Translations under genes and position numbers: made by a program
NCBI GenBank assembly: GCA_016214035.1
Contig: JACRPF010000022.1
Location: forward strand, 230,611 to 294,610
DNA length: 64,000 nt
Reading direction: 5' to 3'
Source of the DNA: Spirochaetota bacterium
GTDB taxonomy: Bacteria; Spirochaetota; Brachyspiria; Brachyspirales; JACRPF01
Shown: one piece after another, positions 24,047 to 29,692 of the stretch
How positions within the stretch are numbered: position 1 is the stretch's first letter
How the letters are laid out: each line of letters begins with the position of its first letter
Notes under the pieces: generated by a model
Databases searched by the model: none
Told to the model about the DNA's origin: nothing
What the model saw: the letters and a program-made list of their open reading frames with translations, nothing else

Positions 24047-25315
24047 TCAGCTTTGCAGACGGCGCTTCCTGTAGACGGACGGCGTACATCCGAATTTTTT
24101 TCTGAACAGGGTGTTGAAATTGGGGACGCTGTTGAACCCCGAACCGAACATGATGTCGATTACCGGACGGTGGGTGCCGGCGAGATACCGCGCCGCCTTG
24201 TCGAGACGGAAATCGTTCACCCGCGTCACGAAGGTCGATCCGAATTCCCGTTTGAACTTCTGCGAGAAATATTTCTTCGACATCTCAAATCTGTTCGACA
24301 GCTTTTCAGACAATCCCGATTCGCGATAATGCTCCTCGATGAACGATGCAGCGCTGTTGTAAAACTGCACATCCCCGTGCGGACGTACGGCGCTCCGTTT
24401 CACCGTTGAGCGTCTGACGGCCAGCCGCGGCGGCAGCAGAATCTTCCGGTCGGCGGGAATATCCATTCCGGACGCGATATCCGCGAGCATATAGACGCCC
24501 ATGCTGCCGATGTCATAATACGGCACCGAGACGCTTGTCAGAAACGGCTTTTCGAGATACGCATCCGGAACGCGGTAGCGTTCGCCGAAATATCTGCCGT
24601 CGTCGATGCCGCATACGGCGACGTGTTCGGGGATGCGCAATCCGTTTGCGGCGGCCTCCTCCATGAAGACCCAGGCCATCGCATCGGTGCAGCAGATCAC
24701 CGCTTCGGGCAGCGGCGTCCGTTTCAGGTATTCCCTGACCGTCATGCGTATAAAATCCCAGTAGGGCATGTCCTTCGCGCGGGGCCGGCGGCGATAATAG
24801 ACTTCCGTAGAAAACGAGTCTTTCGCTATGTCGATGCCGTATACATGACGCTGCTCGAGCGGCAGACCGCGTACGGCAAGCGCATCGCGGTATCCGCGAT
24901 ACCGTTTCAGACAGTAGCTGGTGTAGGCGGGCGCGAAAAAACCGATGCGTCTGAATCCCTCCGAGGCAAGGTGCCCGACCAGAAGATCGAGCGCGGCCGT
25001 CTCATCCACGCCGACGTAACGGCACGGTTCCCGATGCTCCTCGATGATGCATACCGACGGAACTTTGCTGCGGATAACATCCCAGCAATCGCGTTTCCAT
25101 GACGGCGCGAGATCGACCTTGCCGATGATGCCGTCGAACTGCATATAGGCGCCGCTCCGGTACAGTTCCTTGAGATCCACATGCTGGTCGTAGATCATGA
25201 TGCCGGCGTCGATATCGCGGATTGCGTCCATGATGCCCCGGTGCAGATTGGTGAACGACGGTATATTGAACGCCGACTCGATGACATACGTATTGGGGAG
25301 GAAAAGTATTTTCAT
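24047..25315 (-). CDS. XylR-like transcriptional regulator (LacI-type sensor + AraC DNA-binding domain)
   Basis: 422 residues. Sensor part: MKILFLPNTYVIESAF, FDGIIGKVD, YVGVDETAALDLLVGHLASEGFRRIGFF, ICCTDAMAWVF, VAVCGIDDGRYFGE. C-terminal AraC domain: FEMSKKYFSQKFKREFG and MFGSGFNSVPNFNTLFRKKFGCTPSVYR. The same architecture as the proteins at 13546 and 32896. It is directly upstream, on the same strand, of the agarase-like glycosidase gene, its probable target. A good promoter lies upstream (25341-25370). Confidence 0.88.
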   Translation of the reverse strand: MKILFLPNTYVIESAFNIPSFTNLHRGIMDAIRDIDAGIMIYDQHVDLKELYRSGAYMQFDGIIGKVDLAPSWKRDCWDVIRSKVPSVCIIEEHREPCRYVGVDETAALDLLVGHLASEGFRRIGFFAPAYTSYCLKRYRGYRDALAVRGLPLEQRHVYGIDIAKDSFSTEVYYRRRPRAKDMPYWDFIRMTVREYLKRTPLPEAVICCTDAMAWVFMEEAAANGLRIPEHVAVCGIDDGRYFGERYRVPDAYLEKPFLTSVSVPYYDIGSMGVYMLADIASGMDIPADRKILLPPRLAVRRSTVKRSAVRPHGDVQFYNSAASFIEEHYRESGLSEKLSNRFEMSKKYFSQKFKREFGSTFVTRVNDFRLDKAARYLAGTHRPVIDIMFGSGFNSVPNFNTLFRKKFGCTPSVYRKRRLQS

Positions 25316-25340
25316 TGCGTATCTTGTTATTCCTGACTTC

Positions 25341-25370
25341 AGTATAGTGTATTACGTTTCATACTGTCAA
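25341..25370 (-). promoter_or_regulatory. Promoter for the XylR-like regulator at 24047-25315
   Basis: Minus strand TTGACA (25370-25365), 18 bases, TATACT (25346-25341), 26 bases before the ATG. Confidence 0.6.
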
Positions 25371-25505
25371 GCAGTATTCTGTATCTGATTGCAGATTTTT
25401 CAGAAACGGTACCGGCTATTCTCGTTTACTCGATGCCTTTTTTTTACCACGAATGCCGATATCTGACAAAAAGAACATCACTCTTAAAACCTGTATGGTA
25501 ATAAT

Positions 25506-25709
25506 TCATGTTTTTAACATTTCCGCAATTGCAGCATGTTCTGCGCAAAAGCCTATTCCGCATGCCACATCGATGCATATTCCGGTATAAACTTTTCCCG
25601 TAGATGACAGTATCGCCGCGCTGACATTTCCGGCACGAAAATAGTCATTTGAAAGCTTGAATTCTCCAAGGACACTTTTGGCATGCGTTATCAGTTCGTC
25701 AATATTCAT
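25506..25709 (-). pseudogene. Cytidine deaminase, C-terminally truncated
   Basis: 67 residues. The sequence GNVSAAILSSTGKVYTGICI and GFCAEHAAIAEML (zinc ligand Cys and catalytic Glu of the CAE motif) is plainly cytidine deaminase. The protein stops right after the first zinc motif; the second motif PCGxCR and the rest of the fold are absent, and the other frames downstream do not supply them. The active site cannot form. It begins behind an AGGA signal at the left end of the AT-rich island and may be a cassette cut off at its 3' end. Confidence 0.75.
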
Positions 25710-25735
25710 TTTAATGTCCTATTGATGGTGATTTC

Positions 25736-25791
25736 ACACAACGTCCTGCGGGGTTGCGACGTTTGCCGAATGTTATATGCCGTGCCACGCC
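25736..25791 (-). repeat. attC-like site A, 3' of the nuclease gene
   Basis: Read on the minus strand: GGCATATAAC (R''-like, 25781-25772), then a hairpin with AACGTC/GACGTT arms, then GTTGTGT (25742-25736), which can pair with ATATAAC using two G-T wobbles. The outer 25772-25791 is an inverted copy of 26851-26865 on the other side of the nuclease gene, differing by a 5-base insertion. Core-to-core length is only 43 bp. Confidence 0.4.
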
Positions 25792-25817
25792 TCTTTACTG
25801 CTAGCTTTCGAAATATT

Positions 25818-26825
25818 TCATTCAAGATATTTTTCAACAAGCTCACTGTCAATCACACCACCTTGGAAAAGGAGTTCTTTAAATTTCGACAAATCATTTT
25901 TATTAGGATGCTGTATTTTATTAGAAAGTATCTTTAAAAGATCTTTTGCAGATAAAAAACTTGTTTTCACATTTGTTTCTTTGAAGATGTTATTAATCGC
26001 GGTGCTAGTAATGTTACTGAAGTTACTTGACACAACTAAAAAATAGCAAAATTCATAACCTTCTTTTTTTAGGATGGGTAAGTATTTTTTAATATATTCA
26101 ATAAACTTTCTATCTTCAGTTCCAATAGAATACTTCTCTTTCCTAGATTTTGAATCAATTATTATAGCATAATGATTTTGTCTGTTTTTTGCAATTCCAT
26201 CTGGATTTCTACCTGTGCCTTGTCCCATTTCATCAACATCAAAACCAAGCAATTGGAAAACGACGTTTACTTTTTTTTCAAATTCAAGTGATTTAGTTTC
26301 ATTCACGGATAAATTTTCTAAATCATGTATTATTAAAGGCAAATAGTTTTTATAACTGTCGTTTTCGCTCTCATCAATCAGGATCAATGATGTTTTATCA
26401 TCAGCTTCAGTGAGTGTTATAAGTTTTATTACATCATCCCATTCTGATTTATTTTTTGCATAATCGTAAAACAACTTAGGCAAATCAGTCCACTTTATCC
26501 CATGATTTTTTTTCATATTACCAATAGACGGTGTGCATTTATAAAACAACCAGTCAGCTTGAGAGGGATTTTTATTTTCCGTTTTTAAAATATTACCCCA
26601 TTGCTCGAGAATGCTTTCTTTTGTCACTTTTTCCGTTGAAAATATATTAGGATCATCTCCGCATTCTATAACCAGCTTACCATATGCATTACTTCCGAAT
26701 AACTTGCTAAGTGTACGATCAGAAATATTTGCATATTTATAAAATTCTCTTGAAGAAGGTGACTTGTTATGTGTTTTTTTATATTCAATATATTTTTCAA
26801 TAAGTTTGACTTTTAGTTCATCCAT
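25818..26825 (-). CDS. FokI-like PD-(D/E)xK nuclease with N-terminal repeat DNA-binding region
   Basis: 335 residues, AT-rich codon use. Residues 1-130 hold two related helical units (around SPSSREFYKYANISDRTL and NPSQADWLFYK) resembling homing-endonuclease-associated/HTH repeats. Residues 178-300 match the FokI cleavage domain in order: an acidic helix LEFEKKVNVVFQLLGF, RNPDG (Asp209), YAIIIDSKSRKEKYSI (Asp224-x-Lys226), then a strand FCYFLVVSSNFS and LSAKDLLKIL. These correspond to FokI Asp450, Asp467, Lys469. AAGGAG precedes the ATG. The partner is probably the ATPase encoded just upstream on the same strand. A restriction or defence role is inferred; no methylase is present. Confidence 0.65.
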   Translation of the reverse strand: MDELKVKLIEKYIEYKKTHNKSPSSREFYKYANISDRTLSKLFGSNAYGKLVIECGDDPNIFSTEKVTKESILEQWGNILKTENKNPSQADWLFYKCTPSIGNMKKNHGIKWTDLPKLFYDYAKNKSEWDDVIKLITLTEADDKTSLILIDESENDSYKNYLPLIIHDLENLSVNETKSLEFEKKVNVVFQLLGFDVDEMGQGTGRNPDGIAKNRQNHYAIIIDSKSRKEKYSIGTEDRKFIEYIKKYLPILKKEGYEFCYFLVVSSNFSNITSTAINNIFKETNVKTSFLSAKDLLKILSNKIQHPNKNDLSKFKELLFQGGVIDSELVEKYLE

Positions 26826-26850
26826 AAAAACTCCTTAAAATCATAAAGGC

Positions 26851-26972
26851 GGCGTGGCATATAACGCTCCGTGAGTTTGCGACGTGCGGAAACTCGGTGA
26901 TATAGCGCGCAGTGCAGCCGAATTGGAGCATGTCATGAACACGTTGTTGTCTGAAGTTATGGCGCGCATTAA
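26851..26972 (-). repeat. attC-like site B between the ATPase and nuclease genes
   Basis: On the minus strand it begins with CCATAAC (26962-26956), inside a 25-base block matching 28241-28217 in inverted orientation, and ends with GTTATAT (26865-26859), inside a block that is the inverse of site A's outer end. Core-to-core length is 104 bp with internal palindromic pieces (GCTCC/GGAGC, GAGTTT/AAACTC). It has higher GC than the genes it separates. Confidence 0.45.
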
Positions 26973-26975
26973 ATA

Positions 26976-28199
26976 TTACATATTTTCAATTGTTTTTAGC
27001 TTGACAAAACTAGACATTCTTGGATCACTAAATCTGTAAATGCCTTTTGTAATTCTATGCAATAACTTTGATTCATCATCAGCTACTAATCTAATTAGAT
27101 ATTGATTTAGTTCGTTCTGAGTGATTTGGAGGTTAAACATAGAAAGTAACTTTTCTCTCAATACTTTTGCTTTAATTTCATTTGCTTGCAATGCTGCACA
27201 AACCATTAATATTTGTAAATATATTTCACTTTGCAACGTCTGCATAGTACTATTCCAAGTGTGTTGAAGGAATTCCTCCGTATCTTGGATTGAATCATTT
27301 ATTGACTCAATTAAAAGTTTATACTCTACCACATTTAAATTATTTTTGATTGCTTTTTCACCAGATTTTAACGCCAATAAATGTGCAAAATGAGGGTATC
27401 CAGAAGATACATCTAATATTTTATTAATTACATCATCATTATAGGTTAATCCTATTTTACTTGAACCGGAAACTACCAATTGTTTAATTTCATCATTTGT
27501 CATTCTGCTTAATTTAATTTGTTTAACATGTCTACTAATTGAAGCATTTCCTGACATTAATTCAGCAATACTATTACCTACACCAACTATAAGTAATTTA
27601 AAAGGTGATTTCTCATCACTTAATAACTTAACTAACTCGCCAACTTTTTCTTTTGTTTCTTTGCTAAGAGAATCAAACTCATCAATAAATAACACACCTT
27701 TTTTTGATGCCAATTTTTCAGATATATAGCTTGGTGTAATTGAATTGGGCTTATATGTTATTTGTTTTTCATTCCCATCACTGCCATTTATTTTTACAAC
27801 TTTAAAATCTAGTCCTGCATTTATACCTGACAATTCTTTAGTGATTGAACTCACTTCAAAAACATTTACACCAATTGAAGCAAGCGGTTTTTCAAATAAT
27901 TCTTCAATTGTAGTTTGCCTGTCACATCTTTTTACAAAAGTACAATCTTTGTATAATGTATTTATGACTAACTCAACAGTAATGTTTCCTAAAGAGCTTT
28001 TGCCTACACCCCGTTCACCATATAATAGGAAATGAAGCCCAGGGGTATTTAATGATTGAATTACTTTACTTACCTGTTCTGTTCTACCAAAAAAAAATTC
28101 CTTAGAATTTATTGGTTGATGCGGAGTAAATATATTTCGTATATTTGATTCTAATATTTTTATTTCGCCATCTAGTCCAAATGAATCATTCATTTCCAA
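26976..28199 (-). CDS. AAA+/ORC-like P-loop ATPase of the island
   Basis: 407 residues, AT-rich. FFFGRTEQVSKVI (35-47) is the box preceding the P-loop of AAA_16/ORC-type ATPases. Walker A GERGVGKSS is at 61-69, Walker B GVLFIDEFDSLS at 168-179, and a sensor-like LLIVGVGNS follows. The C-terminal 130 residues are helical, with a winged-helix-like end (LRVADDE...GIYRFSDP region). Such ATPases act as NTP-driven switches or loaders; next to a nuclease gene on the same strand the inferred role is activating or delivering that nuclease. RBS is AAGGAATTGGA. A 25-bp inverted repeat brackets the gene within 17 bases of its start and 3 of its stop. Confidence 0.75.
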   Translation of the reverse strand: MEMNDSFGLDGEIKILESNIRNIFTPHQPINSKEFFFGRTEQVSKVIQSLNTPGLHFLLYGERGVGKSSLGNITVELVINTLYKDCTFVKRCDRQTTIEELFEKPLASIGVNVFEVSSITKELSGINAGLDFKVVKINGSDGNEKQITYKPNSITPSYISEKLASKKGVLFIDEFDSLSKETKEKVGELVKLLSDEKSPFKLLIVGVGNSIAELMSGNASISRHVKQIKLSRMTNDEIKQLVVSGSSKIGLTYNDDVINKILDVSSGYPHFAHLLALKSGEKAIKNNLNVVEYKLLIESINDSIQDTEEFLQHTWNSTMQTLQSEIYLQILMVCAALQANEIKAKVLREKLLSMFNLQITQNELNQYLIRLVADDESKLLHRITKGIYRFSDPRMSSFVKLKTIENM

Positions 28200-28216
28200 T
28201 TCCTTATATAAGAGTA

Positions 28217-28241
28217 TTAATGCGCGCCATTATTTCAGACA
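28217..28241 (-). repeat. Outer inverted repeat of the ATPase gene (site C)
   Basis: 25 bases matching, inverted, 26948-26972 with two mismatches. It lies just upstream of the ATPase start. Its core reads ATAATGG instead of a GTTATGG-type integron core, so if this was a recombination site it is degraded here. Confidence 0.7.
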
Positions 28242-28466
28242 TCTACAAATAGGCGAAATTCGTCTAATCTCCCCAATGTCATCAATTGCGACATAAATCG
28301 CCCTCACGTAATTACAAATAATCAAAAGACCAACAATAAAAATGATGATACCCCCGCAACCCAAATTGTCAAGCAAAAATTTTACAATACCATATGCTGC
28401 AGAATATGGTACTTTTTTCTTCACCCGTCTTGACAAAAAATGCTGTCTATTATAAATTCCCCGCAT
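28230..28466 (-). CDS. Possible small membrane protein upstream of the ATPase gene
   Basis: 78 codons with one strongly hydrophobic segment (GGIIIFIVGLLIICNYV, about 38-54) and a basic N-terminus. Not recognised. Its reading frame runs over the palindrome at 28388-28411 and over a good promoter at 28345-28372, and no convincing ribosome-binding site is seen, so it may be only an open frame. It ends inside the inverted repeat upstream of the ATPase. Confidence 0.25.
   Translation of the reverse strand: MRGIYNRQHFLSRRVKKKVPYSAAYGIVKFLLDNLGCGGIIIFIVGLLIICNYVRAIYVAIDDIGEIRRISPICRCLK
28345..28372 (-). promoter_or_regulatory. Promoter driving the ATPase-nuclease genes
   Basis: Minus strand TTGACA (28372-28367), 16 bases, TATCAT (28350-28345), about 145 bases before the ATPase ATG. 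It is the only strong sigma-70-like site seen upstream of the island genes. Confidence 0.5.
28388..28411. promoter_or_regulatory. Palindrome upstream of the island promoter
   Basis: Perfect 8-bp arms TACCATAT/ATATGGTA around 8 bases, 16 bp upstream of the -35 element at 28367-28372. It could be an operator; on the plus strand a C then six Ts follow, so a terminator reading rightward is an alternative. Confidence 0.35.
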
Positions 28467-28629
28467 ACTTGTACGTGGACTTGATATACAAAAGGTGCGT
28501 GTAAACGAACCGAACTAAACACAGCATCCGGATACCGTTCCCTCCGGTGTATTGTATGCGGTTCACATTACACACTCCATTCAAAGGTTAATTACGGCAC
28601 TGCCGTAAAATATATATCAGGAGTGTTTT

Positions 28630-29418
28630 ATGTCGGAAAAATCGAAGTCAATGGAAACCGCCCCAGCTGCCGCGAAGGAATCAGCAGCAAAGACGGTGCG
28701 GAAGATATCGAAGGAGGAAAGCGGCGACACTATGAACCTCGCCGCGATGGACGACACCATCGTATTCGCCGAAGGTCTCGGTGAACGGTACAACCCCGCG
28801 TACGATACGATCAAACTTGCCGGGCTGAAAACGTGTCAGGCCGGATGCAAAGCCGCGTTCGAATCGCTCAGGGAAAGCGATTCCCGGGCGGACGACGCGC
28901 GCAACAAACGCGCCGCAGCTTTCAGCGCGCTCGGAAAACTGTCAACGCGGGTGTACAACGCGTTTTATATTGCCGCGTCGAAGAAGCAGGCCGCGGACGC
29001 GCAGGCCATCGTGAAGAAGGTGCGCGGCGGCGGCAAACGGCTGAAGGACACGCAGAACCCGGACGCGAAGACGATATCGACATCGCAGATGAAGATGGAA
29101 AGCCGCATCGAGAATATGCGGAGGCTCGTGAGCTATGTCGCGGGCACCGGTATCTATGCGTCAAACGAGACCGATCTCACCGCGAAGGCGCTCGGTACGC
29201 ACATCGATTCGCTGGTAACCCTGAACGATCAAGCCACACGTCTGTCCACTACCGTCGCTGCCGACCGCATCAAGAAAGACAAGCTGTTCTACGACGGTGA
29301 AGGATCTTTGGTCGACCGCGGCCTCGATGTGAAGAAATACATCAAATCGGCGTTCGGGGCGGGCTCTCCGGAGTATGCGGCAATATCGAAAATAAAGTTC
29401 AAGAACAAAAAACGCTGA
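28630..29418 (+). CDS. Hypothetical alpha-helical protein
   Basis: 262 residues, not recognised. AGGAG sits eight bases before the ATG. The first 35 residues are Lys/Ala/Glu-rich and disordered-looking; the rest is predicted helical, rich in Ala and Lys (pI clearly basic towards the C-terminus, ending FKNKKR), with no signal peptide, cysteine motif or membrane span. The central part (CQAGCKAAFESLRESDSRADDARNKRAAAF, quoted loosely by its ends) suggests a coiled coil. GC-rich codon use like the chromosome, unlike the AT-rich island just left of it. Role unknown; an abundant DNA- or surface-associated protein would fit the composition. Confidence 0.7.
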   Translation: MSEKSKSMETAPAAAKESAAKTVRKISKEESGDTMNLAAMDDTIVFAEGLGERYNPAYDTIKLAGLKTCQAGCKAAFESLRESDSRADDARNKRAAAFSALGKLSTRVYNAFYIAASKKQAADAQAIVKKVRGGGKRLKDTQNPDAKTISTSQMKMESRIENMRRLVSYVAGTGIYASNETDLTAKALGTHIDSLVTLNDQATRLSTTVAADRIKKDKLFYDGEGSLVDRGLDVKKYIKSAFGAGSPEYAAISKIKFKNKKR

Positions 29419-29431
29419 CGGGAACAACGAT

Positions 29432-29692
29432 GTGTACGTGAGCAATGCCGGTGTGTATATCGGCATTGTTCACGTGTATTATTCCGTTGTCGTCGTGTAC
29501 ATGGTTCAGGTGTTTGTGTATAAAGGAACCGATGCCGTGTACAAAGCTTCCGTATTGGTGTATTACGGCGATGATGCTGTGTACAAAGACCCGGCAATTG
29601 TGTACAAAGGCATTGCTGTTGTGTACAAGGATTCCATAACCGTGTACATGCCCGTTATCGTCGTGTACAAATGTCCGGCGTTTGTGTATTAG
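29432..29692 (+). repeat. 21-bp tandem repeat array, twelve units plus a partial unit
   Basis: Every 21 bases the hexamer GTGTAC or GTGTAT recurs, from 29432 to 29689, thirteen times without a slip, often followed by AAA. The 15 bases between are largely different in each unit. Units 1-2 also form a 15-bp-arm hairpin (29436-29450 with 29461-29475, one mismatch). The array lies between the helical protein gene and a convergent zinc-ribbon gene. Confidence 0.92.
29432..29692 (+). CDS. Possible heptad-repeat peptide (VYxxxxx x12)
   Basis: The array is open in one frame from GTG (29432) to TAG: 86 residues made only of heptads starting Val-Tyr, with Lys often third and a hydrophobic residue usually seventh (VYKASVL, VYKDPAI, VYKGIAV, VYKDSIT). 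Such a pattern would suit a beta-solenoid or stacked strand repeat. There is no signal peptide and only a weak GGGAAC upstream, so translation is uncertain. Since 21 is a multiple of three, absence of stops is only moderate evidence for coding. Confidence 0.4.
   Translation: MYVSNAGVYIGIVHVYYSVVVVYMVQVFVYKGTDAVYKASVLVYYGDDAVYKDPAIVYKGIAVVYKDSITVYMPVIVVYKCPAFVY

What the first reader, a model, noticed from the sequence alone, without database searches (positions are those of the whole stretch)
25736..28241. Each island gene is bracketed by its own inverted repeat, like integron cassettes without an integrase
The ATPase gene lies between 26948-26972 and 28217-28241 (25 bp, two mismatches); the nuclease gene lies between 25772-25791 and 26851-26865 (15 bp plus a 5-base insertion). 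In integron cassettes the start of the cassette is complementary to R'' of its own attC, which produces exactly this pattern, and the cores GTTATAT/ATATAAC and GTTATGG/CCATAAC resemble GTTRRRY/RYYYAAC. One gene per unit, same orientation and a truncated third gene also fit. The repeats extend further than normal and one core is degraded, so another mobile unit is possible.
Basis: partly seen in the sequence, partly recalled or inferred. Interest (0 to 1): 0.75.

Follow-up and report, generated by a model that had tools for sequence, protein, structure and literature searches.

The report
A second kind of integron
Two foreign genes and a fragment of a third lie here as gene cassettes of an integron-like system that is likely moved by a recombinase other than the known integron integrase, and because sister arrays in the same genome carry predicted anti-phage genes, bacteria would have a second way to collect and swap such genes.

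Summary
The inverted repeats are real, and the island is a cassette array, but not of the known integron kind. Minus strand: ATPase unit 28242-26865, nuclease unit 26864-25742, then a cytidine-deaminase fragment. The array begins at a leader (28243-28263) found at only three other places in the genome; each starts another AT-rich array, one with a predicted DUF4297-HerA anti-phage pair, one with an Mrr nuclease. Sites of the same class form arrays in five further genomes of the phylum. There they have a covarying 11-bp stem with a 1-nt/5-nt spacer and no extrahelical base, unlike canonical attC, and two covariance models separate the two classes. Unit ends carry inverted repeats of up to about 20 bp with an A.C mismatch at position 11 in 16 of 19 units, both window units included; the listed canonical units have none. 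The recombinases beside such arrays in which it can be measured lack the insertion that all 31 IntI tested have. The genome also holds a separate, canonical IntI integron. The window array is decayed: its sites have lost most of the stem, and no intact recombinase of this kind was found in this genome. Movement of cassettes is inferred, not shown.

The parts
28243..28263 (-). core of the leader (attI-like): ACGAATTTCGCCTATTTGTAG, crossover expected just after 28243
   Evidence: pattern with up to 3 mismatches gives 4 places in 5.2 Mb, this one exact (control pattern 1); nhmmer model from the other three leaders finds it as best hit in the window, E 3.2e-4
26865..28242 (-). cassette 1 (1378 nt), ATPase
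   Evidence: leader at one end, site 1 at the other; end repeat 24 of 27 with A.C at position 11
26976..28199 (-). nSTAND1/AAA-type ATPase gene, 407 aa from TTG (ATG at 28193)
   Evidence: PF20703 54 bits, PF00004 39 bits; 3 of 392 phylum genomes match at E 1e-20, this one at 639 bits and two others at 165-182 bits
28217..28243 (-). 5' end repeat of cassette 1
   Evidence: 24 of 27 complementary to 26946-26972
26946..26972 (-). 3' end repeat of cassette 1
   Evidence: 24 of 27 complementary to 28217-28243
26859..26952 (-). site 1, attC-like; R'' AGACAAC 26952-26946, R' GTTATAT 26865-26859; stem partly decayed
   Evidence: nhmmer models without window sequence: 3' half E 3.1e-6 and 5' half E 2.7e-5, each the best hit in the window; folds no better than shuffles
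25742..26864 (-). cassette 2 (1123 nt), nuclease
   Evidence: end repeat of ten perfect pairs from GTTATAT/ATATAAC, then A.C at position 11
25818..26825 (-). nuclease gene with FokI-type cleavage domain, 335 aa
   Evidence: PF09254 36.8 bits, cutoff 25; found in 1 of 392 phylum genomes, this one
25736..25778 (-). site 2, attC-like, 43 nt, shorter inside than site 1
   Evidence: best hit of model R3 (built from other genomes only) in 25000-29000: 14.8 bits, E 0.017; second-best nhmmer hit in the window, E 1.7e-4
25506..25709 (-). gene of a third, truncated cassette that starts at 25741: cytidine-deaminase fragment, 67 aa; its own site is missing
   Evidence: NCBIfam cytidine-deaminase models at 21-23 bits, below their cutoffs; tblastn to four plasmid records at 44-50% identity, one annotated cytidine deaminase

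Best explanation
The island is a decayed array of three gene cassettes of an integron-like system that is likely moved by a Xer-like tyrosine recombinase instead of the integron integrase IntI. Shown by sequence: a leader shared by four arrays of this genome; head-to-tail units with one or a few genes; long inverted repeats at unit ends that start at the core G|TT...AA|C and carry an A.C mismatch at position 11; between units a site that, in other genomes of the phylum, has a covarying 11-bp stem with 1 nt unpaired on the 5' side and 5 nt on the 3' side; and recombinases without the IntI insertion next to arrays. Inferred: the site folds as single-stranded DNA, the recombinase joins it to the leader and so inserts or releases circular cassettes, and it did so in trans at several leaders of this genome before the system here broke down. 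Inferred from domains only: ATPase and nuclease serve defence against phages or other foreign DNA, like the DUF4297-HerA and Mrr cassettes of the sister arrays.
For: Leader: exactly four places with up to 3 mismatches, control 1; in three of them two direct repeats stand 35 bp apart. Each leader heads an AT-rich array; a fifth island, C6, has sites but no leader hit. C22 array: predicted DUF4297 (104 bits) and HerA (690 bits) pair in PADLOC, bracketed by a 25-bp repeat, 96%; C11 array: Mrr PF04471 109 bits. Window features recovered with models that contain no window sequence: site 1 halves E 3.1e-6 and 2.7e-5, site 2 E 1.7e-4, leader E 3.2e-4. Stem on 14 sites of four other genomes: 94.8% of cells paired against 65.9% in shuffles, covariation 0.692 against 0.150, 0 of 500 shuffles reach either; slid controls 28-49% paired. 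Model R3 from those sites finds C22 (33.5 bits, E 1.3e-5) and further arrays in G055, G135:C58, G292:C24 and a site in G151 (25.9-45.2 bits) and nothing at E 5 in five canonical-array loci; canonical model R1 finds none of the sites in nine loci of the new class but 10 of the 12 sources it was meant to find or not are as expected in its control run (canonical arrays 20-51 bits). Unit ends: A.C at position 11 in 16 of 19 units. Recombinases: 31 of 31 IntI have 127 residues between GLRxxE and HxxRH, the G147 one 91 and XerD 92; K-box spacing 100 in 30 of 30 IntI where the motif matched, 64 in G147, 58 in the G292:C24 fragment. Recombinase next to array in five cases: C22, G135:C72, G135:C58, G292:C24 upstream and on the same strand, G147:C136 at the far end and convergent.
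Against: No movement was observed and no assay or strain comparison exists here. Four of the five recombinases next to arrays are broken; the intact one (G147) sits at the other end and on the opposite strand. Its TIGR02249 score, 204.7 bits, is under the curated 265 but not far. The window sites pair poorly: site 1 folds no better than shuffles (z 0.58), and so do three sister sites of this genome (z 0.55, -0.58, -0.40), while three G147 sites and one G135 site do (z -4.1, -3.2, -5.6, -2.2). R3 gives the window only 14.8 bits (E 0.94 over 219 kb) and misses site 1, C2a, C6b and the first C11 site at E 5. On six sites of this genome alone the stem's covariation does not exceed shuffles clearly (39 of 500 reach it). 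The simple 1/5 grammar also hit 6 places in 21 canonical loci and the 4/4 grammar 1 place in 9 new loci. Three of 19 units lack the A.C pair, and one more pairing, C22_2x, was left out of the count (A.G).
Confidence: 0.78

Rival explanations
1. An ordinary, decayed integron remnant (CALIN): the sites were canonical attC that mutated beyond recognition.
For: Relatives of the ATPase sit beside canonical attC in BD1-7 (L096, R1 34.0 and 40.1 bits), less surely in Pseudoalteromonas P1-25 (L079, 20.8 bits, E 0.04) and HM-SA03 (L083, by grammar only); R1 gives its best island hit, 10.9 bits, exactly at site 2.
Against: Intact members of the same site family in other genomes have another geometry and are not called by R1; unit-end A.C mismatch and longer end repeats; leader shared with sister arrays of the same family.
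Confidence: 0.12
2. An integron of the new site class that is served in trans by the canonical IntI of contig C16.
For: C16 IntI is the only full-length integron-type recombinase found in this genome.
Against: No attC of the C16 type was seen in these islands (in one search only 150 of 1500 candidates were scored). G147, G135 and G037 have sites of this class and are not among the 58 genomes with a TIGR02249 match at E 1e-60; G147's own recombinase just misses that limit.
Confidence: 0.05
3. Separate small transposon-like units, each gene between terminal inverted repeats and moved in trans by a transposase.
For: Inverted repeats at both ends of each unit, up to about 20 bp.
Against: Repeat sequences differ from unit to unit while the site between units is shared; units stand head to tail behind one leader in one orientation. 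No target duplication was seen by eye beside the ATPase repeat.
Confidence: 0.03

Closest known systems
Integron (IntI, attI, attC cassettes)
   Same: Leader, head-to-tail cassettes, end complementarity at G|TT...AAC, hairpin sites with strand asymmetry, tyrosine recombinase next to the array; recombinase pointing toward the leader as described for Treponema integrons (PMC3607928 passages).
   Different: Sites have a 1/5 spacer, an unbroken stem without extrahelical base, end repeats of up to about 20 bp with A.C at position 11; the recombinase lacks the IntI insertion.
CALIN (cluster of attC sites lacking an integron integrase)
   Same: Cassettes without an integrase beside them (definition from PMC9024848 passages).
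   Different: The sites are not called by a model of canonical attC, and a leader is present.
XerC/XerD/XerA tyrosine recombinases
   Same: Spacing between catalytic boxes 86-92 residues, as in the recombinases of this class.
   Different: The G147 recombinase has about 140 residues before the matched core and scores below the cutoffs (XerA 201 of 220, XerC 169 of 335, XerD 168 of 330).

Membership tests
Canonical integron | attC fold: unpaired central spacer and extrahelical bases on the R''-L'' arm | tested here: not met
   Unbroken stem with 1/5 spacer in 14 sites of four other genomes; R1 calls none of the sites. Features of attC from PMC2727003 passages.
Canonical integron | IntI with its additional domain | tested here: not met
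   91 residues (G147) against 127 in 31 of 31 IntI; 58 and 64 against 100. C22 and G135:C72 remnants have lost the region and cannot be tested. That the domain is needed for activity: title of a cited paper seen in a reference list.
Canonical integron | primary site at the head of the array | tested here: met
   Leader at four arrays of this genome; recombination at it not tested.
Canonical integron | integrase-mediated capture and excision of cassettes | not testable with these tools
   Needs an assay or strain comparison.
CALIN | two or more attC sites by covariance model, no IntI nearby | tested here: not met
   R1, filters off, 25000-29000: best 10.9 bits, E 0.28. IntegronFinder's own model was not available.
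Site class described here (1/5 spacer) | A.C at position 11 of the unit-end repeat | tested here: met
   Both window units; 16 of 19 units in all.
Site class described here (1/5 spacer) | sequence of the site family of this genome | tested here: met
   nhmmer models without window sequence, E 3.1e-6, 2.7e-5 and 1.7e-4.
Site class described here (1/5 spacer) | paired stem with 1/5 spacer | tested here: inconclusive
   Site 1 pairs 4 of 7 stem positions counted by eye and folds no better than shuffles; site 2 is too short to hold it.

The most novel reading that the evidence does not exclude
A second, separately evolved integron: a cassette-capture system of likely spirochaetes in which a Xer-like recombinase without the IntI insertion recombines folded sites that take their strand choice from a 1/5 spacer and an A.C mismatch instead of extrahelical bases, and which collects anti-phage genes at several leaders of one chromosome beside a canonical integron.
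Probability: 0.5. Interest if true: 0.93.

Novelty: new variant of a known kind. Interest (0 to 1): 0.82.

Why it matters
Integrons are taken to depend on one enzyme lineage, IntI, whose extra domain reads extrahelical bases of the folded attC. A working cassette system with a recombinase that lacks this domain and sites that lack those bases would show that capture of cassettes through folded single-stranded DNA arose, or can be done, in another way, and would make the question of how Xer enzymes became integron integrases testable. It would also explain islands that tools built on canonical attC pass over, and add a route by which defence genes gather in bacterial chromosomes.

Tried and rejected
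Folding of the sites as first delimited gave nothing. A first attC grammar with symmetric pairing failed on known arrays and was replaced. Whole-island DNA search in 61 genomes gave only short AT-rich matches outside this genome. DNA and pattern searches for the junction and the end repeat in plasmids and viral contigs gave one weak match and none. The nuclease had no relative in the viral contigs or phages and one partial one in plasmids. The nuclease profile was absent from the 80 ATPase loci kept of 146, so the two genes are not a fixed pair. A transposon reading was dropped for the reasons under rivals.

Full report
1. Observation. The two inverted repeats are present. The ATPase repeat is 24 of 27 pairs flush with a core at 26946/28243, or 26 of 30 if three more bases are taken; 1 of 40 local shuffles reached 24 of 27, so length alone is not decisive. 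The nuclease repeat has ten perfect pairs from GTTATAT/ATATAAC, then an indel. The island is AT-rich (29-32% G+C in 26001-28000 against 52-60% around it).

2. A canonical integron exists elsewhere in the genome. A full IntI (TIGR02249, 375 bits, cutoff 265) lies on contig C16, followed by an attC array that runs off the contig and goes on at the start of C7. I built a canonical attC model, R1, from 27 sites of integron arrays of the phylum, of this genome and of one gammaproteobacterium. In its control run it found canonical arrays at about 20-51 bits and nothing in the window at E 10. In the island with filters off its best hit was 10.9 bits, E 0.28, at 25736-25778.

3. Sister sites and leaders. 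A DNA search with the junction 26826-26975 gave a weak match on C6, and the C6 stretch in turn matched C2, C22 and the window. Reading these places showed AT-rich arrays of genes in one orientation. Directly before the first unit of the arrays on C22, C2 and C19 (the window) stands the same sequence. A pattern search with up to 3 mismatches found it at exactly four places in 5.2 Mb, the fourth on C11 with one mismatch, control pattern one; C11 too heads an array. In C22, C2 and C11 the leader holds two direct repeats 35 bp apart; in the window only the inner one was found.

4. What the arrays carry. C22: DUF4297 (PADLOC 104 bits) and HerA (690 bits), a known anti-phage pair, inside a 25-bp repeat of 96%; the NCBIfam models of the pair match below their cutoffs (134 of 300 and 710 of 850 bits). 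C11: an Mrr endonuclease (PF04471, 109 bits). Window: FokI-type nuclease and nSTAND1/AAA ATPase, a cytidine-deaminase fragment; PADLOC gives the window genes only weak matches, at most 23 bits. Several other cassette genes had no match. The nuclease occurs in 1 of 392 and the ATPase in 3 of 392 genomes of the phylum sample, this genome counted in.

5. The site class in other genomes. Model R2 was made from six sites of this genome (it contains window site 1). In 363 genomes it matched 14 at E 0.1, this genome with its six training sites. Fetched loci showed arrays in G147, G135, G292 and G037, and later G055, G135:C58 and G292:C24. There the site reads ...AAC-A-stem-loop-stem-GGAAC-GTT... with stems of 8-13 bp. 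On 14 such sites 94.8% of cells pair (shuffles 65.9%), covariation 0.692 (0.150), 0 of 500 shuffles as high, and sliding the partner by 1-3 columns drops pairing to 28-49%. With six sites of this genome added the score is 0.512 against 0.136. Three G147 sites and one G135 site fold better than shuffles (z -4.1, -3.2, -5.6, -2.2), four sites of this genome, the window one among them, do not.

6. Two classes. R3, from the 14 foreign sites, found C22 at 33.5 bits, a C11 site at 20.8, window site 2 at 14.8 (E 0.94) and a C6 site at 14.6, and nothing at E 5 in five canonical-array loci. In the island alone with filters off its two best hits are site 2 (14.8 bits, E 0.017) and 26859-26905 inside site 1 (10.4 bits, E 0.24). 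R1 called none of the new sites in nine loci. Simple grammars agree with exceptions: 65 hits of the canonical and 6 of the 1/5 grammar in 21 canonical loci, 1 and 10 in nine new loci.

7. Unit ends. In the new class the complementarity of unit ends starts at G|TT...AA|C and runs inward; with sites as first delimited, 17 units had 4-19 matches in the first 20 positions, nine of them 18 or 19, against 5-14 in 66 canonical units (the unit with 4 had a wrong coordinate and pairs well). Position 11 is A opposite C in 16 of 19 units: 15 and one whose coordinate was corrected. One further pairing, C22_2x, was left out of the 19 (A.G). Both window units have A.C. Of the 66 canonical units the call lists the eight commonest pairs, 65 units, none A.C. 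A random pair in the island is A.C in 4.7% of draws. The window's features are also found by nhmmer models without window sequence.

8. Recombinase. Beside the C22 leader lies a 157-aa frame with the N-terminal SAM-like part and the C-terminal end of a tyrosine recombinase and no middle. Similar broken frames stand upstream of arrays in G135:C72, G135:C58 and G292:C24, same strand; G147:C136 has an intact 413-aa one at the far end, convergent. The spacing between catalytic boxes is 127 residues in 31 of 31 IntI, 91 in G147, 86 in G299 (no array on its contig) and in 10 of 11 database relatives read (one without the motif), 92 in XerD; the second spacing is 100 in 30 of 30 IntI with the motif (of 31), 64 in G147, 58 in G292:C24. 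The G147 protein scores 204.7 bits with TIGR02249 (cutoff 265) and 201 with XerA (cutoff 220). Its 120 best listed relatives are, where named, from treponemes and other spirochaetes (7828 matches in all among 8000 scored).

9. Host. That the phylum is Spirochaetota is inferred: a contig of G040, same phylum, has the length (10,355) of a record titled Spirochaetes bacterium that matched the same ATPase search.

10. Literature. Seen as passages: PMC3607928 (Treponema integrons; none found in T. primitia, T. azotonutricium or other spirochaetes; intI transcribed toward attI), PMC2727003 (attC structure), PMC9024848 (IntegronFinder 2, CALIN), PMC4792948 (IntI-specific I2 helix). Search listings showed no description of such a system; the library lacks most subscription papers and preprints, so prior description is not excluded.

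11. Mechanism. Likely: a Xer-like recombinase joins one strand of a folded cassette site to the leader, so that cassettes enter behind the leader, and the strand is chosen by the 1/5 spacer and the A.C mismatch. Not shown: any recombination, the strand, expression, defence by the window genes. The window array has probably stopped moving, since its sites are decayed and no intact recombinase of this kind was found in the genome (E 1e-6).

Noticed in passing
G000 C16:286828-291413 and C7:150-1691 (L010, L240): A canonical integron with near-identical attC sites; three of its cassettes, about 375 bp, are alike and hold no long frame.
   Followed up: partly
window 29432-29692; L009 18238-18416: Runs of 21-nt units built on GTGTAC or GTACAC; similar runs lie near the C16 integron.
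   Followed up: no
window 28325-28640: The intergenic stretch next to the leader recurs at C21:134842-135165 (69%) with the start of a similar gene, and partly at C3:102165-102231.
   Followed up: partly
L289 5200-5750: The first unit of the G147 C50 array shows no long frame but a chain of short imperfect palindromes.
   Followed up: no
L289 5721-5748 and L290 5859-5870: The leader end of G147 C50 (GGTTTAGATATAACTAG) and the sequence after the last site on C136 (TTATCTAAACC) would form a near-palindrome in an empty array, as if the two contigs were the ends of one array.
   Followed up: partly
L096, L079, L083: Relatives of the ATPase (37-40% identity) stand in or beside canonical integron cassettes of marine gammaproteobacteria.
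   Followed up: partly
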